Shown: positions 48,333 to 61,617 of the stretch, one piece after another | How the letters are laid out: every line of letters begins with the position of its first letter | Numbering within the stretch: the stretch's first letter is position 1 | Assembly (NCBI RefSeq): GCF_007859635.1 | Contig: NZ_CP042306.1 | Location: 1,736,001 to 1,800,000, forward strand | Source: Sphingomonas panacisoli | GTDB lineage: Bacteria; Pseudomonadota; Alphaproteobacteria; Sphingomonadales; Sphingomonadaceae | Reading direction: 5' to 3' | Length of the DNA: 64,000 bases | Notes under the pieces: model-generated | The model's database searches: none | Told to the model about the DNA's origin: nothing | The model's input: the letters and a program-made list of their open reading frames with translations, nothing else | Position numbers and translations under genes: made by a program

Positions 48333-49456
48333 AGCAGAGCTCATCGGCGACGCGCGGCTTCATTCCCGAACCGCTCGCGCAATTTCCGTGGAAAGTCATT
48401 CTGCTGCTGATCGCGATCGGCGTGTTCGACGCGCTGGTCCTGTATTCGGCCGCCAATGGGCACGTGCAGCCCTGGGCGCTCAAGCAGGGCGTGCTGTTCT
48501 CGGTCTTCCTGGCCGCAGCGATGGTTATGTCGCGCGTGGGCGAGGATTTCTGGGGAATGATCAGCCTGCCCAGCTACGCACTCCTGTGCGTCGCCCTGAT
48601 CGGTGTCGAATTGCTGGGCAAGGTCGCGGGCGGCAGCCAGCGATGGCTCGATTTGGGCTTTATCCGGCTCCAGCCGTCCGAGCTGATGAAGCCGTTCATC
48701 GTGCTCGCCCTGGCGCGCTTCTACGACCTGCTTCCCGCCAGCGAAACGCGCAAGTTCGTCGCAATCTGGCCCGCCTTGGTGCTGATCGGCCTGCCCGCGG
48801 CACTCGTGATGCTTCAGCCCGACCTCGGCACGGCGATGATGATCACGCTGGGCGGGATCGTCGTGGTGTTCCTCGCCGGGATCCCGTTACGGCTTTTTCT
48901 GGGCGGCGGTCTGGCGGCGGCGATTGCTGCCCCTCTCGCGTTCAATTTCGTGCTTCACGATTACCAGCGCAACCGCATCCTCATCTTCCTCAACCCGGAA
49001 AGCGATCCGCTCGGCACCGGCTATCATATCACCCAGTCGAAGATCGCGATCGGCTCCGGCGGCATCTGGGGCAAGGGATTCCTCAACGGATCGCAGAGTC
49101 ACCTGGATTACCTTCCCGAAGGTCAGACCGACTTCGCGCTGGCGACGATGATGGAAGAATGGGGGTTGGTCGGCGGCGTTTTGCTGATCATGGCGTGGTT
49201 CGCGATCATCTGGTGGGCGATGGGGGTCGCGTTGCGCGCACAGGGCCGGTTCGCGCGACTGGCGGCGGCAGGGCTCGCGACCACCCTGTTCTTTTACGTG
49301 TCGATCAACATGGCCATGGTCATGGGCCTGGCGCCTGTGGTCGGCGTCCCGCTGCCGTTGATCAGCTATGGCGGATCGTCGCAGATGACGGTCATGTTGT
49401 GCATCGGCATCCTGATGTCGATCGACCGCAGCAGCCGCAAGCAATCGCGCTGGTAG
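48329..49456 (+). CDS. rodA: rod shape-determining protein RodA (SEDS glycosyltransferase)
   Basis: Polytopic inner-membrane peptidoglycan polymerase, partner of PBP2, 375 residues. SEDS signatures are LGFIRLQPSELMKPFIVLALARF, LQPDLGTAMM, EGQTDFALATMMEEWG and LPLISYGGSSQMTVML near the end. GTG start overlaps the mrdA stop (GTGA). Last gene of the rod operon, upstream of tRNA-Lys. Confidence 0.96.
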   Translation: MKQSSSATRGFIPEPLAQFPWKVILLLIAIGVFDALVLYSAANGHVQPWALKQGVLFSVFLAAAMVMSRVGEDFWGMISLPSYALLCVALIGVELLGKVAGGSQRWLDLGFIRLQPSELMKPFIVLALARFYDLLPASETRKFVAIWPALVLIGLPAALVMLQPDLGTAMMITLGGIVVVFLAGIPLRLFLGGGLAAAIAAPLAFNFVLHDYQRNRILIFLNPESDPLGTGYHITQSKIAIGSGGIWGKGFLNGSQSHLDYLPEGQTDFALATMMEEWGLVGGVLLIMAWFAIIWWAMGVALRAQGRFARLAAAGLATTLFFYVSINMAMVMGLAPVVGVPLPLISYGGSSQMTVMLCIGILMSIDRSSRKQSRW

Positions 49457-49538
49457 AATTCGGCGCAAAAAGTGTTTGCAAAGCGCGGCGGCGATGCTAA
49501 CCGCCCCACTCCCCGAACGGGGACCGCCTTTCCGGCAT

Positions 49539-49614
<76 letters not shown>

Positions 49615-49663
49615 CCTTTTTTGGTGACTGAACTTAGCGTTCACCCTTTCAGACGCGATATAA

Positions 49664-51418
49664 TCACGATCGAACACTACGCCCCCCGGCGGTCTTCGTG
49701 CGGGGAGGTGCGGCGATGCGAGACCTTGCCGCCAAAGAAGCTTTCGCACGCGGCGCGTGGTTGCTCGTCGCCTCGCGATCCAAGTCGGCGAAAAAGTCGG
49801 TGATGTCGCCGAATAAACGCGCTCGCGCCGTTGGTCCTTCGGCGAGATGGCCGAGGCCGGCATAGGTTTGCAGCGTAAACGGCCTGCCCAATTGTTCGCG
49901 AACGCCCTTGTCCATTTGCCGGTTCAAATATTCCAAGCCAAGGTCGAGGTCCGCATACGCCAACAGCATGCGTACGTTGGTGTTGCACATACGGACCAGC
50001 CAATCGACAGGCTCGTGACGTTTGCCGCGCAGTCGCACCAACCGCGGTGCGACGCGCCGCACCAGTCGATTGCGCGCGAGTGCGGGCGTAATCTGCCCTA
50101 GAAGGTGACGTTTTCGCTCTACTGAATCTGGCGTTTTCGGATCGGGCTGACGGTAGAGCGCGACGTTTATCGCCACCATCGCGCGCAGCTCAGGCACGAC
50201 ATCCGCCTGCATCATCGACCAGGCCCCGGCGCAAAAGCCGAGTGAATAGATCTGCTTGTATCCCGCCCCACGCAAATGCTCGATGGCGGCCAACACGTCG
50301 TGACCGCCGCTATCGGTGTAGAGTTCGCCGCCCTGCGCCGCATCGCCGCGACCGCTGGTGCCGAAACCGGCGAAGTCGAAGCGCAGGCTCGTCTTGCCGC
50401 GGCTCGCTTCGTCGCGGGCAAAATCGGCGAAGGTGCGGCCGGGACCGACGGTCGATACGAGTAGGCGCACGGGATGATCGCCGGCCGCGTTCACCGGTTC
50501 GCTCAGAACACCGGTCAGCCCGCTCGGGGCGATCTCCACGAACGTTTCGCGCACCAGGACGTCTTGATGGACGAACTCGATGACGGGGCGCGGCATTGGC
50601 CGTCGCAAGACCGGCTCGCCACTCACAGCCTGTTCGTCGTGCAGCACACGGCACCAGCGGGTAAGCGCTTGAATGTCTTCATACGGCATGGTCGGCTGGT
50701 CGGTGGCGCTGAACAGCCAGGGGTGGATCTGGGTCGATATCTGTTCCTGCACGATGATGCCGCGCTGGCTCAGGCGCGCCAACCAGGGCGCGTTGAGACC
50801 TTCGAGTGTCTCGCGCGACATTACGAAAGATGTTGCCGGCGTCTCGACCTCGCCCAGGTCAAGATGGGAGATGTGATCCAGCACCGAAGCAGGGATGCTG
50901 AAGCCGCCGATCGCGATCGTTCCCGCCGCCGCGGCATCGGCGTCCGTCGTCCGCTGCAGCATCTTGAGTTCGCGGACGTAGCGCCGCCCGTTGACGATCG
51001 GTGCCCAAGCGATCAGCGCGGCGAGCGGCTCGTCGACGAGCGCCTCCACCGCGAGCGGAACGCCGAGGCGAACGCCCACGACGATGACACGCGCGGCGCC
51101 ACTGCACCGGGCGTGATGGACAGCCGCCTTGATACCGGCGCTCCAGCAGGCACCGATATCGGCGTCCTCGAGACGGCCGGCGCTCTGCGAACAGCCGTGC
51201 AGGTCCATCAATAAGGCAGGCAGTCCGGCATCGGCCAGCGACTCGGCGAGCGCGACAAGGCCACCGTTCATCGTCCGCTCTTCATGAACGATGCCAGGGA
51301 CGATCACGACGACGGTAGAGGCGGCCGGGACCTGCAACGGCCAATACCAGGCTGCGCCGATGAAGCCGCTGTCCGTGTCGATCCAAATGTTTTGGCCGCG
51401 GCGCCGAGGGTCGGTCAT
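49664..51418 (-). CDS. protein of two fused alpha/beta-hydrolase domains
   Basis: 584 residues, apparently cytosolic, with two hydrolase domains in tandem. Domain one (about 1-250): VVVIVPGIVHEERTMN, LLMDLHGCSQSAG and an elbow GVRLGVPLA without serine. Domain two (about 280-560): LRFDFAGFGTSGRG and elbow LGFCAGAWS with cysteine. From memory, these resemble exosortase-A-associated hydrolases 2 (GLRLG elbow) and 1 (GLC elbow), here joined. The C-terminal 35 residues are basic and low-complexity. Its ATG overlaps the glycosidase stop by 4 bp. Substrate unknown; likely an acyl or aminoacyl ester or thioester. Confidence 0.75.
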   Translation of the reverse strand: MTDPRRRGQNIWIDTDSGFIGAAWYWPLQVPAASTVVVIVPGIVHEERTMNGGLVALAESLADAGLPALLMDLHGCSQSAGRLEDADIGACWSAGIKAAVHHARCSGAARVIVVGVRLGVPLAVEALVDEPLAALIAWAPIVNGRRYVRELKMLQRTTDADAAAAGTIAIGGFSIPASVLDHISHLDLGEVETPATSFVMSRETLEGLNAPWLARLSQRGIIVQEQISTQIHPWLFSATDQPTMPYEDIQALTRWCRVLHDEQAVSGEPVLRRPMPRPVIEFVHQDVLVRETFVEIAPSGLTGVLSEPVNAAGDHPVRLLVSTVGPGRTFADFARDEASRGKTSLRFDFAGFGTSGRGDAAQGGELYTDSGGHDVLAAIEHLRGAGYKQIYSLGFCAGAWSMMQADVVPELRAMVAINVALYRQPDPKTPDSVERKRHLLGQITPALARNRLVRRVAPRLVRLRGKRHEPVDWLVRMCNTNVRMLLAYADLDLGLEYLNRQMDKGVREQLGRPFTLQTYAGLGHLAEGPTARARLFGDITDFFADLDREATSNHAPRAKASLAARSRIAAPPRTKTAGGRSVRS

Positions 51419-53967
51419 CGCGGCACCTCGATCGTCGCGCCGGTCCAGGCGTTCAACGCCGATACGCTGACGCGTGCGGTCGGCCTGACATCGTCGGGTG
51501 ACCGATTCAGAAGGATTGCTCGCGTTTCGCCGGGCGCCAAGTGGAAATATTCATCCTCGGCCACATAGCCGTCGGCGTCGAAATACACCGATTGTGCAAC
51601 CGTACGGGCAGAGACCGAGAGAGCGATGCTCCCATCCGGCCGCTTTTCGATTCCTGCGATTTCAAGACCGACATCGCGGCGGCGGTGGGCTGACAAGCCG
51701 TCCGGAAAATAGAAAGCGCGGTCCAGCGTGCGGCCCGACGCGTCGCGCAGGGTCGCGGATACCAAGGCGTGTTCGGCGGGACCGAAACGGTAAGCCCGCG
51801 ATACGTCGATGAAGCTATCGAACCATTCACCGATCGCCCAGCTGTCGCCGCCATGCGCCGGAACCGCGATGTCGCGGCCGCTGGATTGCAGGCGCAGGCC
51901 GTCGTCGCGGTACAGCGCGACCTCGACATTGGCCGCGAGTGGTTTGACCGGGTCGTTGACGACGTGCAGCGCGAGCCCGTTCGTGCCTTCGCCGGTAAGG
52001 AAGAGATGGATCGGCGCGGATGCGCGGCGCAAGCCGTGGAACGCGGCCTTGGGCATGCCCCGCTCGTCGAGCAGCCCCCAGCCCGCTCCCGCCCACAGAT
52101 CGCGCAGGAACCAGACCAGTGCGCCGCGGCAGCCGGACGCCGGGCGTCGCCACTCGGACATGGTCGCTTGGATCACTTCGGCACCGACCGCGCGGCTGAG
52201 GTGCAGATAGCGATCGTAGTCGGTGCCGCGCAGTTCGACCGGATCGACGCCGTAGAGCTGCTGCAAATAATGGTCCCGGACGTCCTCGAAATCCCAGCCA
52301 GCGCCGAGGTCGCGCGGAGTCCGGGCCTTCCAGCCGGGGTGATGGCTGCGCAGTGAGGTACCGCCCGGCATTCGGGCGATCGTCGCCGGCTGCGGCACGT
52401 TCGCGATCGCGAGGCACTCGCTTGCGAAGCGCAAACCGGAACGGCGCGCGTCTTCCATCGGCCGCAGATACGCGCCGACGCCGTAATAGGAGGTCGTGCC
52501 GGCGTCGTTTTGATGTGGAAACGCGCCACCATGCGCGCTGGAGGGCCAGTATTTGGCTCCCGGACAATAGCGCTGGGCAAGTTCGGCGAGCTCCTCGTCG
52601 AACAACGGCTGCGACCATGCCTCACGCGGGGCGCCCCACATCGCGGCCTGCTGCCCGGCTTCGCTGTTGCCGCAGATCACCGCGAGCGAAGGATGCGCTT
52701 GCCAGCGGGCGAGTTGCTGCTGCGCCTCTTCCCGCACCGAAGCCACGAAGTGCTCGTCGTCGGCGGGGTAATCCATGTTCGCGAACATGAAATCCTGCCA
52801 GACCAGCAGGCCGAGTTCGTCGCAAGCCGCGAAGAAGGCGTCGTCTTCATAGACTATGCAGCCATTGACGCGGAGCATGTTGAGGCCAGCCGCCTGCACT
52901 TGGGCAAGCGCCGCGCGGGTCGCTTCGGGAAGCGCCGCCGGGCTGACGACGTCGAGCGGTGTCCAGTTCGCACCGCGGCAGAAGATCGGAACGCCATTGA
53001 CGCTAAGCGCGAAATCGCCGTCGGCGGTGTCCACGGTCAACGTTCGGAAGCCGACGTTGCCGAGGTCCACGATCACGGCATCCGCACCTCCGGCGGACTC
53101 GACGACGAGTTCGGCAGTGTACAGCGCCGGCTCCCCATGGGTATGCGGCCACCACAGAGCGACTTCGGGGATCGTTAGCGAGACGGCGTAAGTGGCGTCG
53201 TTGTCGGCTTGCGCGGCCGTTGCTTCGTAAGAAACGCCATTCCGGCTGACCCGCAACGTGACCGTTTCGATACGGCCGGCTTCACCGAGCGGCGCAAGTT
53301 CCACGCTCAAACTAACCCGCCCGACGCTGCCGTCGAGTTCACTGTGCAATCGCACCGCCGATACATCGACGCTGGTGCGGTCGATCCATTCGATGGCACG
53401 CCAGGGTCCGATCGCCGGCGCCGGCGGCGACCAGCCCGGCGTGTGCCCGAGCAGGCTGACGCGTGCCCAGCGAAGTTGTTGATGCTCGACCATCGGCGCG
53501 CGCCAGCGTGGCCGCGGGCGGCGATGCGCAAGGAATGCATCGAGCGACGCGAACCGCATCAGCAATTCGTTCTCGCCGTCGATCAGCGACGGTACCGCGC
53601 ATTCATGGGCGACGTGCATGTTGTCGCTGATCAACAGGAGCACACCGTTCAGCCAGATACTGCACTCGCCGGCCAATCCACCGAACGCCAAATAAGGCAT
53701 CGACGATGCTGAATCGAAGTGAGCGCGGAACCACCAATCGCCGGCGTCGAACCACTTGGGCGGCCCGTCGAGCGACCACCGCCCGGCACGCCGCAGCGCC
53801 CCGGCAACGGTATCGGGCGCATCGATCGGCAGCCAGTCCGTTGCGGGAACATCGGCGAGTTGGGCAGGCGTTTCAATCGCGCCCGCCGGCGTCTCGCAGA
53901 GCGTCCAGCGCGCATCCAGGGGTGCGCGACGGTGAGAAGAGACGCCTAGAATACGGCCCCCCATCAT
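51415..53967 (-). CDS. glycoside hydrolase family 2 protein, beta-mannosidase-like
   Basis: 850 residues without a signal peptide. It has an N-terminal jelly roll with WFDAGDWWFRAHFD and GGLAGECSIWLNG, an immunoglobulin-like domain, and a TIM barrel starting NGVPIFCRGANWTPLD. The acid/base Glu is in AVICGNSEAGQQ and the nucleophile Glu in LRFASECLAI, both where GH2 mannosidases carry theirs. C-terminal beta domains follow. It lies 4 bp after the carrier-protein gene and overlaps the double hydrolase. True substrate unknown. Confidence 0.88.
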   Translation of the reverse strand: MMGGRILGVSSHRRAPLDARWTLCETPAGAIETPAQLADVPATDWLPIDAPDTVAGALRRAGRWSLDGPPKWFDAGDWWFRAHFDSASSMPYLAFGGLAGECSIWLNGVLLLISDNMHVAHECAVPSLIDGENELLMRFASLDAFLAHRRPRPRWRAPMVEHQQLRWARVSLLGHTPGWSPPAPAIGPWRAIEWIDRTSVDVSAVRLHSELDGSVGRVSLSVELAPLGEAGRIETVTLRVSRNGVSYEATAAQADNDATYAVSLTIPEVALWWPHTHGEPALYTAELVVESAGGADAVIVDLGNVGFRTLTVDTADGDFALSVNGVPIFCRGANWTPLDVVSPAALPEATRAALAQVQAAGLNMLRVNGCIVYEDDAFFAACDELGLLVWQDFMFANMDYPADDEHFVASVREEAQQQLARWQAHPSLAVICGNSEAGQQAAMWGAPREAWSQPLFDEELAELAQRYCPGAKYWPSSAHGGAFPHQNDAGTTSYYGVGAYLRPMEDARRSGLRFASECLAIANVPQPATIARMPGGTSLRSHHPGWKARTPRDLGAGWDFEDVRDHYLQQLYGVDPVELRGTDYDRYLHLSRAVGAEVIQATMSEWRRPASGCRGALVWFLRDLWAGAGWGLLDERGMPKAAFHGLRRASAPIHLFLTGEGTNGLALHVVNDPVKPLAANVEVALYRDDGLRLQSSGRDIAVPAHGGDSWAIGEWFDSFIDVSRAYRFGPAEHALVSATLRDASGRTLDRAFYFPDGLSAHRRRDVGLEIAGIEKRPDGSIALSVSARTVAQSVYFDADGYVAEDEYFHLAPGETRAILLNRSPDDVRPTARVSVSALNAWTGATIEVPR

Positions 53968-53971
53968 GCGC

Positions 53972-54232
53972 TCAGGTCCCGCCGATGGTGACCAGGGCGT
54001 CGCGGATCGAAGCGATGCTGACGAAAACGCTGCGATTGAGCATCTCGTCCGGGAATTCGACGTCGAACTCGCCTTCCAGCGCCAGCATCACGTTGACCGT
54101 GGCGTGCGATGTCATGCCGGCCTCGTACAGATCGTCATTGCCGCTCGGCGACAGCGCATCGACCGGGAAGCGGCCGTGCTTGACGAGCACCTCGCGAATG
54201 CGAGCGTCGAAATTGTCGTGAGGGATGGGCAT
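53972..54232 (-). CDS. stand-alone carrier protein of the amino acid:carrier-protein ligase type
   Basis: 86 residues, acyl-carrier fold. The phosphopantetheine serine is at about residue 42 in DLYEAGMTSHATVNVMLAL, not the DSL of fatty-acid ACP. This GMTSH form is the one associated with carrier proteins charged by SerRS-like ligases (from memory of Bradyrhizobium proteins). The ATG at 54232 is chosen; a TTG at 54241 is in frame. First gene of the minus-strand operon, divergent from the operon with the predicted ligase. Confidence 0.85.
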   Translation of the reverse strand: MPIPHDNFDARIREVLVKHGRFPVDALSPSGNDDLYEAGMTSHATVNVMLALEGEFDVEFPDEMLNRSVFVSIASIRDALVTIGGT

Positions 54233-54553
54233 GGCGAGCAACGTCGTTTAGTCCGCGAAATGAAAACTGAAAAGTTAGGTAACGCGCAGAGGTTGAAATT
54301 CCATTTACTCTAAACCCGGCGGAGAGATTGGCGCCAAAGCGGACCATTTACCGTTGCGTCCGCGCTGGGCTCAATCGAGCCTTCAGTTCCGTACAATGCT
54401 GCTCCGCCAAATGGTGGCGGATACTCACCGGGAACGAAATCGCGCTATCATCGGAAGCCGGCCACGCTCCAAGTAAACTTTTCGAGCTGTCCTTTAGGAA
54501 TAATTGAACTGCGCGGACTATAACTTCTGATCGAGAAAGACGGGGCTCTCGTG
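54233..54553. other. 321-bp divergent regulatory region
   Basis: Control region between the carrier-protein operon and the dehydrogenase-ligase operon. No gene seen. Two perfect hairpins: ggctc-aatc-gagcc at 54368-54381 and tccgcca-aatgg-tggcgga at 54403-54421. A ttgaac and a tataac (54504, 54519) lie too close together for a standard promoter. It is locally richer in A+T than its surroundings. Confidence 0.6.
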
Positions 54554-55714
54554 ATGCAAGGCCAGGAATTCGATGAACTGCTCGCCGCGGTGCGCAAGAT
54601 CGCGACCGACGTCGCGGCCCGTCATGCGAACGACGTCGATGCCCAAGCACGGTTCCCGCACGAATCCGTCGCGGCACTGCGCGAGTTGAAGGTTCTTTCC
54701 GCGGCCGTCCCGGCCTCGTTCGGCGGCTACGGTTGCTCGATGGTGCAGCAGGCTCAGCTATGCGCCGCGATGGCGCACGGCTGTTCGGCCAGCGGCATGG
54801 TGCTGGCGATGCATTTGATCGAAGTCGCCTGCATCGCTCGTCACGGCATGGAATCGCCATACTTCGTCGACGTTTTGAAGCGGATCGTCGCCGACCAGAC
54901 GCTGATCGCGTCGGTCACGTCTGAAGTCGGCACGTCGGGCGACACGCGCTCCAGCATTTGCGCGGTGCAGCGCGACGGCGATCGTTTCACGCTGGAAAAG
55001 GCCGCGACGACCGTCTCCTACGGACAGCATGCCGACGCCTTGCTCGTCACGGCGCGGCGCGCGCCTGATGCGGCCGCGAGCGATCAAGTCCTCGTATACC
55101 TTGAGAAGGGCGACTACACACTCACCCCGACCTCGGCATGGGATACGCTGGGCATGCGGGGCACCTGCAGCCCGGGCGGCCAGTTGACCGCGCAAGGGCC
55201 GATCGAGCGCATCGTGCCCGGAAGCTTCGCCGATTCATCCGCGCAGACAATGGTGCCTTACTCGCACATCCTGTGGTCCGCTTTGTGGTGGGGGATCGCC
55301 GCCGACGCGGTCTCGCGCGCGGCTGCCTTCATTCGCGCCGCCGCGCGTCGCAATCCCGGCGTGACGCCGCCTGCCGCCGGCACCCTCGCGCTCGCGACCG
55401 CCGAGCTGCAGGCGATGCATCATCACTGGCTGCAGAGCGCGGCCGCGTTCGACGCGATCGCGGACGATCGGGACGCCCTGATGGCGATGGGCTGGGCGCT
55501 CAAGATGAACAATCAGAAGATCCAGGCGTCGGAGGCCGCCCCACGTATCGTGCACCAGGCGCTACAGGTGATCGGCGTGATGGGATACAAGAACGATTCC
55601 CCCTTCAGTGTCGGCCGCCATTATCGCGACAGCCTCTCCGCCGCGCTGATGATCTCCAACGAGCGTCTGGCCGAAAAAAGCGCATCCATGCTCCTCGTCC
55701 TGAAGGACGCCTGA
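54554..55714 (+). CDS. acyl-CoA dehydrogenase-like flavoprotein
   Basis: About 386 residues, full-length acyl-CoA dehydrogenase fold. Segments include VAALRELKVLSAAVPASFGGYG (N-terminal helices), GTSGDTRSSICAV and FTLEKAATTVSYG (FAD/beta domain), WDTLGMRGTCSPGG, then the C-terminal helical bundle ending RDSLSAALMISNERLAEKSA. Paired with a carrier protein and ligase, it may oxidise a carrier-bound aminoacyl or acyl group rather than a CoA ester. Start ATG 54554 (a GTG at 54551 is adjacent). Ligase gene 1 bp downstream. Confidence 0.88.
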   Translation: MQGQEFDELLAAVRKIATDVAARHANDVDAQARFPHESVAALRELKVLSAAVPASFGGYGCSMVQQAQLCAAMAHGCSASGMVLAMHLIEVACIARHGMESPYFVDVLKRIVADQTLIASVTSEVGTSGDTRSSICAVQRDGDRFTLEKAATTVSYGQHADALLVTARRAPDAAASDQVLVYLEKGDYTLTPTSAWDTLGMRGTCSPGGQLTAQGPIERIVPGSFADSSAQTMVPYSHILWSALWWGIAADAVSRAAAFIRAAARRNPGVTPPAAGTLALATAELQAMHHHWLQSAAAFDAIADDRDALMAMGWALKMNNQKIQASEAAPRIVHQALQVIGVMGYKNDSPFSVGRHYRDSLSAALMISNERLAEKSASMLLVLKDA

Positions 55715-55715
55715 G

Positions 55716-56639
55716 ATGACCGACGCGACCGGACCGACCTACGACATCGACAGCTTCTATCAGGGGCTGGTCGAGCATGGCCTGATCATCCCGTCGGAAA
55801 TACAGGGGGGCTACGGCCGGGGCGCGGTGTTCGAAGATATATTAGAGCGTTTCAACGATCTCGTTTCGCGCACCGCGAAGGACGACGGCGCCGAACCGAT
55901 GATGTTTCCGCCGATCGTCCCGCGCACGCTGATCGAGAAGGTCGGCTATATGGACAACTTTCCGCATCTGTGCGGTTCGATCAGCAGTTTCTTCGGTGGC
56001 GAAAAGGATGCGCGCGCGCTCAGCGAGTGCGTTCATGCGGGCGAGCGCTGGGAGGACAGGCTCGACCCGACCGAGGCCATGCTGACCCCGGCGGCCTGCT
56101 ACCCGGTATATCCGACATTTGCCGGTACGCTGCCTGCGGGCGGGCGCCTCGCGACGCTGACGGGCTGGGTCTATCGCCACGAGCCCTCGCCGGAGCCGAC
56201 CCGGTTGCAGGCGTTCCGCATGCGCGAGTTCATCCGCGTGGGGACGGTCGATCAGGTCGTGGCATGGCGCAACGCCTGGCTCGAGCGCGGCCTGTCGCTG
56301 CTGAAGTCCCTCCAGCTACCGGTCGCGAGCGACGTCGCGAATGACCCCTTCTTCGGCCGCGCCGGCAAAATGATGGCCGCCAGTCAGCGGGACCAGCGGC
56401 TGAAGTTCGAAATCCTGTGCCCGGTGATTTCCGCGGATAACCCGACCGCGATCTGCTCGTTCAACTGGCACCAGGATCATTTCAGCGCCACCTTCGACAT
56501 CAAGACGTCGGATGGCGAGGTGGCGAGCACCGCCTGCCTCGGCTTCGGTCTGGAACGCGTGACGCTCGCGCTGATCAAGACCCACGGCTTCGATCCGGCA
56601 ACATGGCCGGCCGAGGTCCGCGCGCTGCTGTGGCCGTGA
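55716..56639 (+). CDS. amino acid:[carrier protein] ligase (SerRS-like)
   Basis: Class-II aminoacyl-tRNA-synthetase-like enzyme without a tRNA-binding domain, 307 residues. Known relatives from Bradyrhizobium activate glycine or alanine and load it on the phosphopantetheine of a small carrier protein. Visible: motif-2-like YRHEPSPEPTRLQAFRMREF, motif 3 GFGLER, and zinc ligands Cys128 (TPAACYPV), Glu171 (MREFIRVG) and Cys274 (STACLGFG), with spacings close to the known C131/E176/C279 set. Amino-acid choice cannot be read here. Its stop overlaps the DUF1839 start (GTGA). Confidence 0.92.
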   Translation: MTDATGPTYDIDSFYQGLVEHGLIIPSEIQGGYGRGAVFEDILERFNDLVSRTAKDDGAEPMMFPPIVPRTLIEKVGYMDNFPHLCGSISSFFGGEKDARALSECVHAGERWEDRLDPTEAMLTPAACYPVYPTFAGTLPAGGRLATLTGWVYRHEPSPEPTRLQAFRMREFIRVGTVDQVVAWRNAWLERGLSLLKSLQLPVASDVANDPFFGRAGKMMAASQRDQRLKFEILCPVISADNPTAICSFNWHQDHFSATFDIKTSDGEVASTACLGFGLERVTLALIKTHGFDPATWPAEVRALLWP

Positions 56640-57628
56640 CACGCGTCGTCGCGCTGCACGGCCTCGACGCCGGCGCGCACGACGCGCATCGACTGCACGC
56701 GCCCGACCGCATCTGGCCCGAGACGAATTGCTACGCCGATCTGTGGATCGAGCTGTTGCACGCGCAAGGCATGGATCCGCACGCGATGCTGCCATGCGTC
56801 TTCGGGCTCGATTTCGAAGGCGATCAATGGACATTCTTCAAGCCGTCGCTGGCCGATCTGCGAACGCTTTACGGCATCGACGTTCAGGAACTGACGCTCT
56901 GGCGCCCGTTGTTGGACCATGCGCTCGAACATGTCGGCGCGGGCAAGCTGGTTAGCGTGGAGGTCGATTCGTGGTGGCTGCCGGACACGGCCGGCACCGA
57001 CTATCGCGAGGAGCATGGCAAGACGACGATCGTGATCAACGACGTCGATATCGCGGCGCGGCGCCTTCGCTATTTCCACAACGCCGGCTATTTCACGTTG
57101 GACGGCGAGGACTTTGCCAGGACGTTCTGGTTGGACGGTGAAGCGCCGATATTGCCGACATACGCCGAACTGATCCGCATCGATCGCGCGGTCGTTCGCG
57201 ACACCGCCACACTTCGCGCGCTGTCGCGTGGGCTCCTCGGCGAGCAACTGAATTGGCGCCCGGCGGACAACCCGGTCGAACGCTTCCGATCGCGATTCGA
57301 CGCCGACCTGCCCGCGTTGCAGGAGGCAGGATTGGCCCAGTATCACAAATGGGCTTTCGCCGGACTGCGCCAGCTCGGCGCCGCGTCAGCGCTCGCGGCG
57401 GAATTCCTGCGCTGGCAATGGGCAGACGAAGCTCCGGAGAACGCCATACAGGCTTTCGAACGTATCGCGACCCTGGCGAAGACGCTGACGCTGAAATCCG
57501 CCCGCGCCGTCAATTCCGGCCGGCCGCTCGACGCGACGGAGAGCTTCGACGAAATGGCCGAGGCGTGGCAGATCGCAATGGACGGGACCATCGCGGCACT
57601 TGCCAGGTCCGGCGCCGACGAAGCGTGA
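56636..57628 (+). CDS. DUF1839 family protein
   Basis: 330 residues. It carries the DUF1839 core: FGLDFEGDQWTFFKPSLADL, LVSVEVDSWWLPDTAGTDYR, KTTIVINDVDI and RLRYFHNAGYFTLDGEDF. A cysteine-protease- or transferase-like fold is conceivable (papain-like Cys-His order is seen at LPCVFGLD and further on) but unproven. The family habitually sits next to aminoacyl-carrier ligases, so it is a candidate for the transferase that removes the aminoacyl group. GTG start overlapping the ligase; its end overlaps the acyltransferase ATG. Confidence 0.88.
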   Translation: MTRVVALHGLDAGAHDAHRLHAPDRIWPETNCYADLWIELLHAQGMDPHAMLPCVFGLDFEGDQWTFFKPSLADLRTLYGIDVQELTLWRPLLDHALEHVGAGKLVSVEVDSWWLPDTAGTDYREEHGKTTIVINDVDIAARRLRYFHNAGYFTLDGEDFARTFWLDGEAPILPTYAELIRIDRAVVRDTATLRALSRGLLGEQLNWRPADNPVERFRSRFDADLPALQEAGLAQYHKWAFAGLRQLGAASALAAEFLRWQWADEAPENAIQAFERIATLAKTLTLKSARAVNSGRPLDATESFDEMAEAWQIAMDGTIAALARSGADEA

Positions 57629-58749
57629 TGCCGGTACTATCGGCGTCGGTGGCGAGCGATGGAGCGGCCTCGGCACCGCCGATATTGGCTGCCGATTCCG
57701 ATGACCGCGGGACCCTCCTGTCTGTTCAGATATTACGGTTCCTCGCGGCGTTCGGCGTGGCGGTCTATCACGCGCATCTGCATCTAGCCGCCGTGCAGCC
57801 GGGCTATCGATCGGGCATTGAGGATCGCATCTTCCAGGTGGGCGCCAGCGGCGTCCATGTCTTCTTCGTCATCAGCGGCTTCGTCATGGTCTTCACGTCG
57901 TTCAGAGGCGGCCGGTCGCTGAGCCCGCGACAGTTCCTGGAACGACGCTTTTTTCGCATCTATCCGATATATTGGCTGTTCGCGGCGGTGTATGTCGTGA
58001 CGCACTGGGCCCTCGGCTCCCCCTATGCACTGTCGTCGTCAGACTATGTCGGTGCGATCCTGCTCCTGCCGACATTCGCCGCCATGATCATCGGCTCCGG
58101 CTGGACGCTCACGTACGAAGTCTATTTCTATCTGGCCTTCGGCGTTGCTTTAGCGCTCGGGCGCCGGACCGGGCTCGCACTCCTTACCGCATTCTTCGCG
58201 AGTAGCGCGGTGGCGGGTGCCGTGTTCCATCTCCAGGGTCCGGTCCTATCCATCTTGACCAATGCGCTACTGCTCGAATTCCTGGCCGGATGCGCACTTG
58301 GCCTGATCTACCGACGCGTCGCGGTACCCATACTCTTGGGGTATATCATGCTGATCGTCGGCGGAGGTGGGCTCGTGGCGAGCGAAATGTTCGCTCCAGA
58401 GTGGTTCCCTCTGACGCTAGCCCTCGCCCCGTTTTCAGCACTTCTCGTCGCGGGCGCGCTTACCCTTGAACGACAGATCAGCGCACCCGTGACGCACCTG
58501 CTCGCACGGCTCGGCGACAGTTCTTATACTTTGTATTTGCTGCATATTCTGGTGATCGACCTGCTACTCGAGATCTCGCCGGTTGCAGCGTTCGGCCGGC
58601 ATTCGAACGCCTCAGCCTTGTTGGCGGTTCCCTTCGCGGTTGCAGCAACGGCCCTAGCGGTGGTCGGGCATCGCGTAGTAGAGCTGCCCCTGCTCCGATG
58701 GTTTCGACGGGCCGTACTGAAGACAGCGCCGATCACCACACTTAACTAA
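57628..58749 (+). CDS. acyltransferase family 3 membrane protein
   Basis: 373 residues with about ten membrane helices, OafA/YrhL/ExoZ type. It has the catalytic histidine in AFGVAVYHAHLH, then GASGVHVFFVISGFVM (family signature) and FLERRFFRIYPIYWLFA. It acylates an envelope or secreted glycan in homologues. TGATG overlap with DUF1839 places it in the same operon. An internal frame shadow extends upstream to 57253 but the ATG at 57628 matches the family. Confidence 0.9.
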   Translation: MPVLSASVASDGAASAPPILAADSDDRGTLLSVQILRFLAAFGVAVYHAHLHLAAVQPGYRSGIEDRIFQVGASGVHVFFVISGFVMVFTSFRGGRSLSPRQFLERRFFRIYPIYWLFAAVYVVTHWALGSPYALSSSDYVGAILLLPTFAAMIIGSGWTLTYEVYFYLAFGVALALGRRTGLALLTAFFASSAVAGAVFHLQGPVLSILTNALLLEFLAGCALGLIYRRVAVPILLGYIMLIVGGGGLVASEMFAPEWFPLTLALAPFSALLVAGALTLERQISAPVTHLLARLGDSSYTLYLLHILVIDLLLEISPVAAFGRHSNASALLAVPFAVAATALAVVGHRVVELPLLRWFRRAVLKTAPITTLN

Positions 58750-58780
58750 ATGTTAACCATTTCCTTCAACACTTTTTAAC

Positions 58781-59986
58781 ATGCTGGGACGCGCTATTCG
58801 ATCAGGCCGCCATGCCTGCCTCCTCGTCGCCTTCGCCTTGTCGGCATGTGGCGGCTTTGGCGCATCGACCGACGTAACCGCGGCGGCGATCGATCCGGCT
58901 CCCAGTCCGACGTCCGATCCGGGAACGGCTCCAACCCCGGCGCCGACGACCGCGGGTATCGCGTCGCCGTCGTTGCAAGGACTGGCAAAGGTATCGTCCG
59001 GCCTAAGCCTTCAGGATTACCTGCAGCCGTCATGGGGCACCGGCGACGTGCCGGGATCGATGGCACCCGACGATGTGGGAGCATTCCGCTTTTTGTGCGC
59101 GCCGTCGCACAACGCCTATGACGATCCGATCGTGTATCCGGGGCAACCGGGCAAATCGCACCTCCATACGTTCTTCGGCAACACCAAGACCGATGCCGGT
59201 TCTACCTATGAATCGCTGCGGACGACCGGCGACAGCAGTTGCAACGACATGCTCAACCGTTCGGCCTATTGGGTCCCGGCGATGATGAACGGCGCGGGCA
59301 AGGTCGTGATGCCCGATGGCCTGGCGGTCTATTACAAGCGCTATCCGGTGACCGACGCGCGCTGCACGACGTTCGCGACGGCTTGCCTGCCGCTGCCACG
59401 TGGCCTGCGCTATGTCTTCGGGTACAACATGCTCGACCCGTCGAGCACGCCGACCGACACTACCAAGCGTTGGTGGAATTGCGACGGGCCCGGCGCCACG
59501 ACCGGTCACTTCGCGACGATCGCGGAGGCGTTGCGCGGCTGCCCGACCGGCGATCGCATCGGTGCCGTTCTGGTGGCGCCCGATTGCTGGAACGGTACGC
59601 AACTCGACAGCCCGGACCATCGCAGCCACATGGCGTACCGCGTACAGGACGGCCAGGGACACGCCGTCTGCCCGAAAACGCACCCCTATATCATTCCCGA
59701 ATTCCAGCTCGGCGTTTGGTATTCTACCGACGCGACCACGAAGAACTGGTACCTCGCCTCGGATCGCATGGCCGGCATGGCCGATATGGAACCGGGTTCG
59801 ACCATCCATGCCGATTGGTTCGGCGCGTGGGACGACAGTGTGATCGATCTCTGGACCGCGAATTGCATCAACAAGATGCTGAGCTGTTCGGGCGGTGACC
59901 TCGGCAACGGTCAGCAGCTGAAATTATTGACGGGCTATAGCCCGACGACGACGACAACGCTCGCCGACATCCCGGCAAGACCATAG
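58781..59986 (+). CDS. DUF1996 lipoprotein
   Basis: 401 residues. Signal and lipobox LLVAFALSACGG point to a membrane-anchored lipoprotein, then a Pro/Thr/Ala linker. The DUF1996 domain has FRFLCAPSHNAYDDPIVYPG, SHLHTFFGNT, YWVPAMMNG, SHMAYR and PEFQLGVWY-type blocks, with several paired cysteines. The fold occurs in fungal and bacterial secreted proteins of unclear function. 31 bp after the acyltransferase gene, possibly the same transcript. Confidence 0.87.
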   Translation: MLGRAIRSGRHACLLVAFALSACGGFGASTDVTAAAIDPAPSPTSDPGTAPTPAPTTAGIASPSLQGLAKVSSGLSLQDYLQPSWGTGDVPGSMAPDDVGAFRFLCAPSHNAYDDPIVYPGQPGKSHLHTFFGNTKTDAGSTYESLRTTGDSSCNDMLNRSAYWVPAMMNGAGKVVMPDGLAVYYKRYPVTDARCTTFATACLPLPRGLRYVFGYNMLDPSSTPTDTTKRWWNCDGPGATTGHFATIAEALRGCPTGDRIGAVLVAPDCWNGTQLDSPDHRSHMAYRVQDGQGHAVCPKTHPYIIPEFQLGVWYSTDATTKNWYLASDRMAGMADMEPGSTIHADWFGAWDDSVIDLWTANCINKMLSCSGGDLGNGQQLKLLTGYSPTTTTTLADIPARP

Positions 59987-60123
59987 CGGCCTGGTATTCC
60001 GGGATTGCAGGCGCCCAGACCGTCCTGCCCAAACGAGCACGATCACAATCGATTAGCCTTGATTGCCCCTATCGCTCACGGCGAAATCGGTTAGCTTCCC
60101 TGTGCGACAAGAGGGAGGCAGCG

Positions 60124-61617
60124 ATGCGCGTTGGTACGATCCTGGTGCTTTTGATGACGCCGGCGGCCGCCGCCGCCCAGACCGCGCCGCAGCCGTCGGC
60201 ACAGGGCGACGTGTCTGTCACGATTTACAACAACAACCAGGCGCTGGTGCAGGACACGCGCAACCTGGCGCTGATCAAGGGACCGAACCGCATCGAGTTT
60301 CCCGACGTCGCCAACAACATCCGTCCGGAAACCGTCCGGCTGTCGCTCGCCGATTCGACGATCATCGAACAGAATTTCGACTTCGATCTGCTCAGTCCGG
60401 CGGCGCTGCTGCAGAAGGCGGTGGGCCAGACTATCACGATCATCCGCACCAACCCCGCGACCGGCGTGGAGACGCGCGAACGTGCCAAGGTGCTCGCCAA
60501 CAATGGCGGCGTGGTGCTCCAGATCGGCACCAATATCGAAGTGTTGCGCGACGACGGCCTGCCGGTCCGCGTGGTGTACGATTCGATCCCGCCCAACCTG
60601 CGCGCGCGCCCTACCCTCTCGGTATCGGTCGATAGCGGCGCGGCCGGCAAGCGCGCGGGTACGCTCAGCTATCTGACCACCGGTCTCGGCTGGAATGCCG
60701 ACTATGTCGCGCTGTTCGACGAGACGAAGGGCGTGATCGATGTCCAGGGTTGGGTGACGCTGCGCAACACGAACAACGTTGCCTTCGACAATGCCGAGAC
60801 CGTCCTGGTGGCAGGTGCGCCCGGCGAAGGGCGCAACGGCAGCGCTGGGCTCGCGCCCGGCTCGCTCGCCGGCACCGAAACCTCCAAACGCCAGCGGCTC
60901 GGCGACTTCTACCTCTACCCGATCGATCGCCGGCTGACGATCGCCCCCAACCAGCAGAAGCAGGTCAGCTTCCTGTCGGTGGGTAATGTGCCGGCGAAGA
61001 AGATCTACCGGTACCGGAACGACTGGCTGCAGGAATCAAAAGATTCGATCAGCGCGACGTCGGTCCTGAGCTTTTCGAGCTCGAAGGCGGGCGGTCTCGG
61101 GGACGCGCTGCCGGCGGGCGCGGTTCGCGTCTATATCCGCGACTCCAAGGGCCAGCCGCAATTCATCGGCGAGAACCAGATCGACCATACACCGATGGGG
61201 TCGATGCTCGACATTCCAACCGGCAGCGCCTTCGACATCAAGGTCAAACCCGAGCTCGTGAAGCGCGAACCGATCAGCGGCGAGCTGTGGCGGCGTAGCA
61301 TCGAGTATCGCGTCTCGTTCACCAGCGACAAGCCGGGGGAGGTCGCCGTCTCGAAATCGGTTACCTACGAAAGCCGGACGTTCTGGCGGACCAGCATGAA
61401 GTACACGCTGACGAACGCGCGTCCCAACCCGGTGACCGTCGAGCTGATCCAGGGCGGGCTCGCACAGGATTGGTGGTGGTGGGGCGATTGGGACGTCCGC
61501 GTGCCGAACGAAAGCATCAAGGGCGAACAACGCTCGCGCGACGAACGCGTTTGGAAAGTGGACGTGCCGGCGAACGGCACCGTCGTTGTGACCGCCGACT
61601 TCGACACGCGCTGGTAA
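60124..61617 (+). CDS. DUF4139 domain-containing secreted protein
   Basis: 497 residues with a signal peptide (MRVGTILVLLMTPAAAAAQ). The DUF4139 body includes SVTIYNNNQALVQDTR, NFDFDLLSPAALLQKAVG, SYLTTGLGWNADYVALFD, NNVAFDNAETVLVAG and YLYPIDRRLTIAPNQQKQV. Extracellular beta-rich protein of unknown function. First of two tandem paralogues; next gene starts 9 bp downstream. Confidence 0.9.
   Translation: MRVGTILVLLMTPAAAAAQTAPQPSAQGDVSVTIYNNNQALVQDTRNLALIKGPNRIEFPDVANNIRPETVRLSLADSTIIEQNFDFDLLSPAALLQKAVGQTITIIRTNPATGVETRERAKVLANNGGVVLQIGTNIEVLRDDGLPVRVVYDSIPPNLRARPTLSVSVDSGAAGKRAGTLSYLTTGLGWNADYVALFDETKGVIDVQGWVTLRNTNNVAFDNAETVLVAGAPGEGRNGSAGLAPGSLAGTETSKRQRLGDFYLYPIDRRLTIAPNQQKQVSFLSVGNVPAKKIYRYRNDWLQESKDSISATSVLSFSSSKAGGLGDALPAGAVRVYIRDSKGQPQFIGENQIDHTPMGSMLDIPTGSAFDIKVKPELVKREPISGELWRRSIEYRVSFTSDKPGEVAVSKSVTYESRTFWRTSMKYTLTNARPNPVTVELIQGGLAQDWWWWGDWDVRVPNESIKGEQRSRDERVWKVDVPANGTVVVTADFDTRW

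What the first reader, a model, noticed from the sequence alone, without database searches (positions are those of the whole stretch)
49664..58749. Two divergent operons around an amino acid:carrier-protein ligase, with a glycosidase and a double hydrolase
A stand-alone carrier protein, a SerRS-like ligase without tRNA-binding domain, an acyl-CoA-dehydrogenase homologue, DUF1839, a membrane acyltransferase, a GH2 enzyme and a two-domain alpha/beta hydrolase lie in two back-to-back operons with overlapping genes. Ligase, carrier and dehydrogenase neighbours are known in Bradyrhizobium, but the end product is unknown. The extra glycosidase, acyltransferase and hydrolase suggest a pathway that builds an amino-acid-modified glycan or envelope polymer.
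Basis: partly seen in the sequence, partly recalled or inferred. Interest (0 to 1): 0.8.

Follow-up and report, generated by a model that had tools for sequence, protein, structure and literature searches.

The report
Carrier-protein amino-acid-to-sugar coupling cassette
This is a compact set of genes, shared by many unrelated soil and symbiotic bacteria, that probably loads an amino acid onto a small carrier protein and joins it to a sugar; it offers a way to test what these long-unexplained amino-acid-loading enzymes are for.

Summary
In detail: seven genes in two divergent operons. Their linkage is far beyond chance. Of 53 related loci, 33 hold the five-gene core carrier, flavoprotein, ligase, DUF1839 and GH2. 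In 299 genomes around a burkholderial relative, close GH2 relatives occur in 18; 17 of these have the ligase beside it. In 151 genomes around an Ensifer relative, ligase (over cut-off) and DUF1839 occur in the same 28, side by side. The tandem hydrolase is a frequent accessory; an acyltransferase-3 abuts the cluster in 7 of 27 genomes (0.12 expected).

The parts
49664..51418 (-). Tandem alpha/beta hydrolase (584 aa). N domain has GxRxG where the nucleophile Ser should be; C domain has Cys396 (GxCxG) and His524. Accessory part.
51415..53967 (-). GH2 glycosidase, beta-mannosidase type (850 aa), presumed acid/base Glu436 and nucleophile Glu517, with Ser435 before the acid/base. Core part.
   Evidence: 5n6u 7.3e-68; residues conserved 37/37.
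53972..54232 (-). Stand-alone carrier protein (86 aa), phosphopantetheine Ser42. Core part.
   Evidence: NF005480 94.4 bits, cut-off 72; Ser42 conserved in at least 95% of 45 rows.
54233..54550 (.). Interval between the divergent operons; the AcpS-type phosphopantetheinyl transferase gene found in 33 of 53 relatives, usually in this interval, is absent.
   Evidence: only short matches with E above 0.02 in 49001-60000.
54551..55714 (+). Acyl-CoA-dehydrogenase-fold flavoprotein (387 aa) without the catalytic Glu. Core part.
55716..56639 (+). Amino acid:carrier-protein ligase (307 aa); presumed Zn ligands Cys128, Glu171, Cys274. Core part.
56636..57628 (+). DUF1839, predicted carrier-protein-dependent amide synthase (numbering here from the longer ORF 56603-57628: Cys43, Thr141/142, His159). 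Core part.
57628..58749 (+). Acyltransferase-3 membrane protein (373 aa). Occasional partner.
   Evidence: PF01757 90.6 bits, cut-off 31; adjacency test.

Best explanation
The locus is a probably horizontally acquired aminoacyl-carrier-protein cassette. The carrier is primed by a phosphopantetheinyl transferase encoded elsewhere (inferred). The SerRS-like ligase activates a small amino acid, probably glycine or alanine as in studied relatives (recalled), and loads it on the carrier. The flavoprotein oxidises the aminoacyl group on the carrier, more likely an N- or C-oxygenation or imine-forming step than ordinary desaturation, because the catalytic Glu is missing (inferred). DUF1839 takes the acyl group onto Cys43 and passes it to an amine, forming an amide, as CcbD does with an amino sugar. 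The acceptor is most likely an amino sugar of a surface polysaccharide or its precursor. GH2, a retaining beta-glycosidase, cleaves or rearranges the glycoside; where the tandem hydrolase and acyltransferase are present they edit or O-acylate the product. Shown here: gene content, linkage, conserved residues, predicted folds. Inferred: substrate, order of steps, product.
Against: I found no biochemistry for DUF1839 (only one paper holds the word). Its Cys/(Thr/Ser)/His arrangement (PMC10318531) differs from the Cys-His-Glu of CcbD, and I could not measure geometry. Fold similarity at about 14% identity does not prove amide synthesis; AziU3, which shares the fold nearly as well, acts in a different pathway (recalled). 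The envelope genes are near the cluster in only a minority of genomes, four genomes supply both enrichments, and some of them resemble each other. DUF1839 also occurs without the ligase in 3 of 21 DUF1839-bearing genomes of the 299 (G326, G371, G450). The R. binae plasmid has only four core genes, so GH2 may be dispensable. In L012, L033 and L035 the ligase, carrier, flavoprotein and hydrolase occur without DUF1839 and GH2; L033 has an NRPS and PKS beside them by Pfam. L028, L040, L046, L051, L055 and L066 also lack DUF1839 beside the ligase, and four weaker ligase homologues in the Ensifer family have none in their genomes.
Confidence: 0.5

Rival explanations
1. The cassette makes a diffusible small molecule, an amino-acid/amino-sugar conjugate in the manner of lincosamides, rather than a polymer decoration. 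GH2 would free or activate it by removing a sugar.
For: DUF1839 resembles CcbD, CtaG and AziU3, all from natural-product pathways (CcbD read in PMC12945683 passages; the other two recalled). One module variant sits beside an NRPS/PKS line (L033). DUF1839 occurs on 59 plasmid records, 12 of them typed conjugative.
Against: In the 40 gene clusters printed, nothing beyond the core, hydrolase and AcpS recurs in more than 7 loci, so no exporter or resistance gene is a constant partner (not all clusters were annotated); polysaccharide genes recur in part.
Confidence: 0.25
2. DUF1839 is a thioesterase or protease-like hydrolase that releases the amino acid or edits wrongly charged carrier; the real acceptor step is by the tandem alpha/beta hydrolase acting as an acyltransferase.
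For: DUF1839 has a papain-like fold and a rearranged triad (PMC10318531, passages); the C domain of the hydrolase has an invariant Cys nucleophile and His in the 34 of 36 rows that cover it.
Against: The tandem hydrolase is missing in several cassettes with the full core while DUF1839 sits beside the ligase in all 28 Ensifer-family genomes with a ligase over cut-off. Near full-length match to CcbD, including the helical part.
Confidence: 0.15
3. The genes are independent and lie together by chance, or only ligase, carrier and flavoprotein belong together and GH2 serves sugar catabolism.
For: Some loci have ligase without GH2 (L012, L033, L035, L038, L040, L046); the genomes of L038, L040 and L046 have none at all.
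Against: 17 of 18 genomes with this GH2 type have the ligase on the same contig within about 6 kb; GH2 distances track the other core genes at r 0.78-0.90; same order in alpha-, some beta- and gammaproteobacteria, planctomycetes and an acidobacterium.
Confidence: 0.03

Closest known systems
Amino acid:carrier-protein ligase neighbourhoods of Agrobacterium/Bradyrhizobium (Mocibob 2010, not held; predicted role in Iyer 2010 note, PMC2922099)
   Same: Ligase, carrier, redox enzyme, conserved uncharacterised ORF and a glycosidase; predicted amide ligation of an amino acid to a sugar amine. In Ensifer-family genomes the ORF next to the ligase is DUF1839, which I take to be the Atu2574 type (not directly tested).
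   Different: Window cassette is split into two divergent operons as in Burkholderiales relatives, has a divergent tandem hydrolase and an acyltransferase, and lacks the AcpS gene found in 33 of 53 relatives.
Lincosamide synthetase, CcbD/LmbD with carrier (PMC12945683 passages; PMC4351081 abstract)
   Same: Fold of the amide-forming enzyme; carrier-bound amino acid.
   Different: Lincosamide pathways charge the carrier with an NRPS A domain (LmbC), not a SerRS-like ligase; CcbD uses Cys-His-Glu; 14% identity in the structural alignment.
CtaG (closthioamide) and AziU3 (azinomycin) enzymes
   Different: Different substrates and chemistry (recalled); 10-16% identity in the alignments.
BtrH (butirosin), acyl carrier protein:aminoglycoside acyltransferase
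   Same: Papain-like enzyme that moves a carrier-bound acyl group to an aminoglycoside (PMC10318531, passage).
   Different: Not compared here by sequence or structure.
Exosortase-A-associated hydrolases 1 and 2 (TIGR03100, TIGR03101)
   Same: The two halves of the tandem hydrolase match hydrolase 2 then hydrolase 1.
   Different: All five tandem hydrolases scanned score below the curated cut-offs (60.5/202.75 and 36.4/168.45 bits for the window protein; best relatives 111.7/202.75 and 141.8/168.45); here the halves are fused.
GH2 beta-mannosidases (5n6u, 2je8)
   Same: Similarity over most of the length and both catalytic Glu positions.
   Different: Ser instead of Asn before the acid/base Glu in 37 of 37 cassette enzymes; that Asn is the GH2 rule is recalled.

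Membership tests
Amino acid:carrier-protein ligase (NF005479) | Score over curated cut-off | tested here: met
   410.6 bits against 357.
Amino acid:carrier-protein ligase (NF005479) | SerRS catalytic core without tRNA-binding domain | tested here: met
   307 aa; aligns to 227-505 of a 527-aa SerRS only.
Amino acid:carrier-protein ligase (NF005479) | Zn ligands Cys/Glu/Cys | tested here: met
   C128, E171, C274 conserved in at least 95% of 54 rows; that these are the Zn ligands is recalled.
Amino acid:carrier-protein ligase (NF005479) | Charges the neighbouring carrier | not testable with these tools
   Needs in vitro charging.
CcbD-type carrier-dependent amide synthases | Papain-like fold with C-terminal helical part over full length | tested here: met
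CcbD-type carrier-dependent amide synthases | Cys-His-acid triad | tested here: inconclusive
   Cys43, His138 and His159 invariant, Thr/Ser at 141 and 142, in 43 of 43; PMC10318531 reads a swapped Cys/(Thr/Ser)/His triad; geometry not measured.
CcbD-type carrier-dependent amide synthases | Amide bond formation with an amine acceptor | not testable with these tools
   No assay.
Acyl-CoA dehydrogenases | N- and C-terminal ACAD domains | tested here: met
   PF02771 54.7 and PF00441 39.6 bits over cut-offs; middle domain PF02770 20.8, below 33.3.
Acyl-CoA dehydrogenases | Catalytic Glu (SCAD/MCAD or isovaleryl position) | tested here: not met
   Ile (32), Val (15), Pro (1) at position 368 and Ser (46), Ala, Trp at 238, of 48. 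I placed the two sites by eye on the alignments (the 7p98 chain aligned itself reads Thr there); which sites hold the Glu is recalled.
GH2 glycosidases | GH2 domains over cut-off and two catalytic Glu | tested here: met
   PF22666, PF00703 and PF17786 over cut-off; E436 and E517 in 37 of 37.
GH2 glycosidases | Asn before the acid/base Glu | tested here: not met
   Ser435 in 37 of 37; the rule itself is recalled.
Exosortase-A-associated hydrolases | Score over TIGR03100/TIGR03101 cut-offs | tested here: not met

The most novel reading that the evidence does not exclude
A widespread pathway outside actinobacteria works like lincosamide synthetase but is charged by an aminoacyl-tRNA-synthetase relative: the amino acid is oxidised while on the carrier by a flavoprotein lacking the usual base, DUF1839 couples the oxidised residue to an amino sugar by an amide bond, and a GH2 enzyme with an altered -1 subsite then releases or transfers that unusual aminoacyl sugar into a surface glycan. 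This would give a biological role to carrier-protein aminoacylation, unexplained since 2010.
Probability: 0.35. Interest if true: 0.8.

Novelty: new member of a known kind. Interest (0 to 1): 0.6.

Why it matters
[quoted passage not shown] The cassette, or DUF1839 of its type, occurs on plasmids of plant and fungal symbionts and soil bacteria (Rhizobium, Azospirillum, Mycetohabitans, Caballeronia) and the ligase in loci labelled as several phyla (partly metagenome-assembled genomes). Naming DUF1839 as the probable amide-forming step turns the question into a one-pot assay. If an amino acid is displayed on an exported polysaccharide, surface charge and host recognition could be affected.

Tried and rejected
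Rejected: the acyltransferase as a core member (only L045 gave a weak match to P0007 among the 53 loci; other acyltransferase-3 proteins do recur beside the cluster). Rejected: membership of the tandem hydrolase in the exosortase-A families (below cut-off). Rejected: ordinary acyl-CoA dehydrogenase chemistry as the default (missing Glu). Looked for and not found: an AcpS gene in the window cluster; a second copy of the 21-nt tRNA-Lys end in the 64 kb window, so no attachment-site pair there. Foldseek and VIA on the tandem hydrolase matched one domain at a time. Sequence search of DUF1839 in the PDB gave only chance-level rows.

Literature: DUF1839 gave one paper, which does not name CcbD, CtaG or AziU3 and suggests from gene context a glycan-processing role at the cell wall. 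Bll0957, Bll6282, Atu2573 and 'carrier protein ligases' gave two papers, Atu2571, Atu2572, Atu2574-2576 and bll0958 two, four longer phrases none. Of these, PMC10888616 (one passage) lists Bll0957 and Bll0958 among proteins changed in a phaR mutant; PMC11941606 was seen in the listing only. Searches were swamped by unrelated papers and prove nothing about absence. The library lacks most subscription papers, including the 2010 PNAS paper.

Limits of the counts: the GH2 cut of E < 1e-140 was set. Of the three ligase-bearing genomes without it, G415 lies on a 12.4 kb contig and G330 has only fragments of GH2 and DUF1839. Cluster spans for G300, G301, G303, G304, G305, G308, G311, G312, G326, G430, G504, G520, G578 and G592 were partly estimated; the observed 7 and 5 were read by me and rechecked by hand. 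Searches got 27 of the 34 cassette-bearing handles I had, those with a strong GH2 (left out: G309, G310, G313, G314, G330, G415, G486). L053, L054, L056, L057, L024, L048 and L041 were left out of the distance correlation. Of the 20 loci without the full core, about half end at a contig edge. DUF1839 was folded on an alignment of 31 of 43 sequences, the hydrolase on 25 of 36. One search scored 7,999 candidates and listed 120 of 7,034 matches. An earlier count said 14 of 20 for the hydrolase; the recount is 13.
Full report
What is there. The window (position 1,736,001-1,800,000 of a 3.40 Mb single-contig genome) carries two divergent operons right of rodA and tRNA-Lys. Leftward: carrier, GH2, tandem alpha/beta hydrolase. 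Rightward: acyl-CoA-dehydrogenase homologue, ligase, DUF1839, acyltransferase-3. Junctions are tight or overlapping (GH2/hydrolase ATGA; ligase/DUF1839 GTGA if the GTG at 56636 is the start; DUF1839/acyltransferase by one base).

It is one system. A scan of named genome records with a ligase alignment gave 53 loci. Ligase 53, flavoprotein 47, carrier 44, DUF1839 42, GH2 36, tandem hydrolase 35 and AcpS 33. 33 of 53 have all five core genes, 27 of those the hydrolase and 25 AcpS. Most beta-proteobacterial loci have the window's split layout, often with AcpS between carrier and flavoprotein; planctomycetes, an acidobacterium, a gammaproteobacterium, some beta-proteobacteria and the rhizobial stretches have carrier-flavoprotein-ligase-DUF1839-GH2 in one direction, the hydrolase following in either orientation or missing. 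In 299 genomes of the family of G298 (the genome of L006) the ligase is in 20, the close GH2 in 18 (17 shared), DUF1839 in 21 (18 shared). Exceptions: G326 has carrier, flavoprotein, DUF1839, GH2 and hydrolase but no ligase (L058); G371 has DUF1839 with none of the other cassette genes in an 18 kb stretch (L060), and G450 has DUF1839 near a hydrolase (L059), both with only a distant, unlinked GH2 homologue. In 151 genomes of the family of G314 (the Ensifer genome of L055), 28 have the ligase over cut-off and the same 28 have DUF1839, beside it each time; four more have a weaker ligase homologue and no DUF1839. Within the core, pairwise distances correlate at 0.78-0.90 and with the hydrolase at 0.42-0.58; 0 of 200 permutations reached the observed value in any pair.

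It probably came in sideways. Only the window's own genome has a convincing ligase among 298 family genomes (two other matches are a 32%-identical 405-aa protein below the family cut-off and a fragment with stops). The closest relatives are metagenomic proteins up to 91% identical, one of them from a MAG labelled Sphingomonadaceae (86%), so the cassette is not confined to this genome; then come Burkholderiales at 75-78%. In five genomes of the same genus rodA is present and, in four of the five, followed by tRNA-Lys, but none of the cluster genes, the acyltransferase or the DUF1996 gene was found in the 15 kb stretches. Three of these stretches carry a partial copy of the tRNA-Lys 3' half, which suggests an insertion hot spot; no such copy is in the window.

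The flavoprotein. It has the ACAD domains but Ile/Val at the SCAD Glu position and Ser at the isovaleryl position (sites placed by eye). A profile search of the PDB gives first an 'acyl-CoA dehydrogenase type 2 domain protein' (5gj7, 9e-25), then a short-chain ACAD (1.9e-24), a butyryl-CoA dehydrogenase (2.9e-24) and DnmZ (4.1e-24; nitrososynthase, recalled), with further nitrososynthase-type chains at 4e-22 to 5e-20. Oxygenation or N-oxidation is thus as likely as dehydrogenation; Iyer and colleagues also guessed monooxygenation (PMC2922099).

GH2 and the accessories. GH2 is closest to beta-mannosidases, keeps both catalytic Glu, and has Ser before the acid/base in 37 of 37, which may mark a changed sugar at the -1 site. 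It shows no obvious signal peptide (by eye). The tandem hydrolase has an Arg in the first nucleophile elbow and a Cys in the second. The window copy is only 20-28% identical to the others and departs at four positions conserved in at least 95% of rows. Acyltransferase-3 proteins lie within 2 kb in 7 of 27 genomes (0.12 expected; without the window 6 of 26, 0.11 expected) and polysaccharide deacetylases within 10 kb in 5 of 27 (0.43 expected); four genomes have both, so these are not independent. Pfam confirms a sugar transferase, UDP-sugar dehydrogenase, glycosyltransferase, carbamoyltransferase and deacetylase as neighbours in single loci.

Prior art. The present locus is a new member of that kind. 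New here, as far as the searches show, are the counts, the structural match of DUF1839 to CcbD, the missing base in the flavoprotein, the Ser in GH2, the accessory genes and the variants without DUF1839 and GH2.

Open points. Which amino acid, which oxidation, which acceptor, and whether the product stays in the envelope are not shown. Confidence: one system 0.97; DUF1839 transfers the residue to an amine 0.65; the acceptor is a sugar 0.55; a surface glycan 0.45.

Noticed in passing
L012, L033, L035: Ligase, carrier, AcpS, flavoprotein and tandem hydrolase without DUF1839 and GH2. In L033 an NRPS (formyltransferase, AMP-binding, luciferase-like domain, PCP) and a PKS follow the ligase; all three loci share a cluster of large ORFs with the PKS-type sequence.
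   Followed up: partly
L058:7506-14400: A cassette with carrier, flavoprotein, DUF1839, GH2 and tandem hydrolase but no ligase there, and no ligase match in that genome at E 1e-3: an unknown way of charging the carrier.
   Followed up: partly
L130:4015-4060, L132:1029-1075, L133:10428-10473: Partial copies of the 3' half of tRNA-Lys in same-genus genomes, as left by integrating elements.
   Followed up: no
window 49664-51418: The window's tandem hydrolase is far more divergent (best match 28%) than the other cluster proteins (best matches 54-77%), yet keeps Cys396 and His524.
   Followed up: partly
L074:8563-9780: A different, 405-aa relative of the ligase (160 bits, below cut-off 357) in another genome of the window's family, beside what look like polysaccharide chain-length and export genes (my reading of ORF starts).
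   Followed up: no
L007, L066: Cassettes in which no flavoprotein was found between AcpS and ligase.
   Followed up: no
L067:7061-9153: Ligase and hydrolase intact-looking with only short GH2 and DUF1839 fragments between them: a decayed or deleted cassette.
   Followed up: no
L135:9623-12951: Four-gene version (carrier, flavoprotein, ligase, DUF1839) on a Rhizobium binae plasmid typed as conjugative.
   Followed up: partly
window 58781-61617: Right flank encodes a DUF1996 protein and a protein with DUF4139/DUF4140 matches below cut-off.
   Followed up: no
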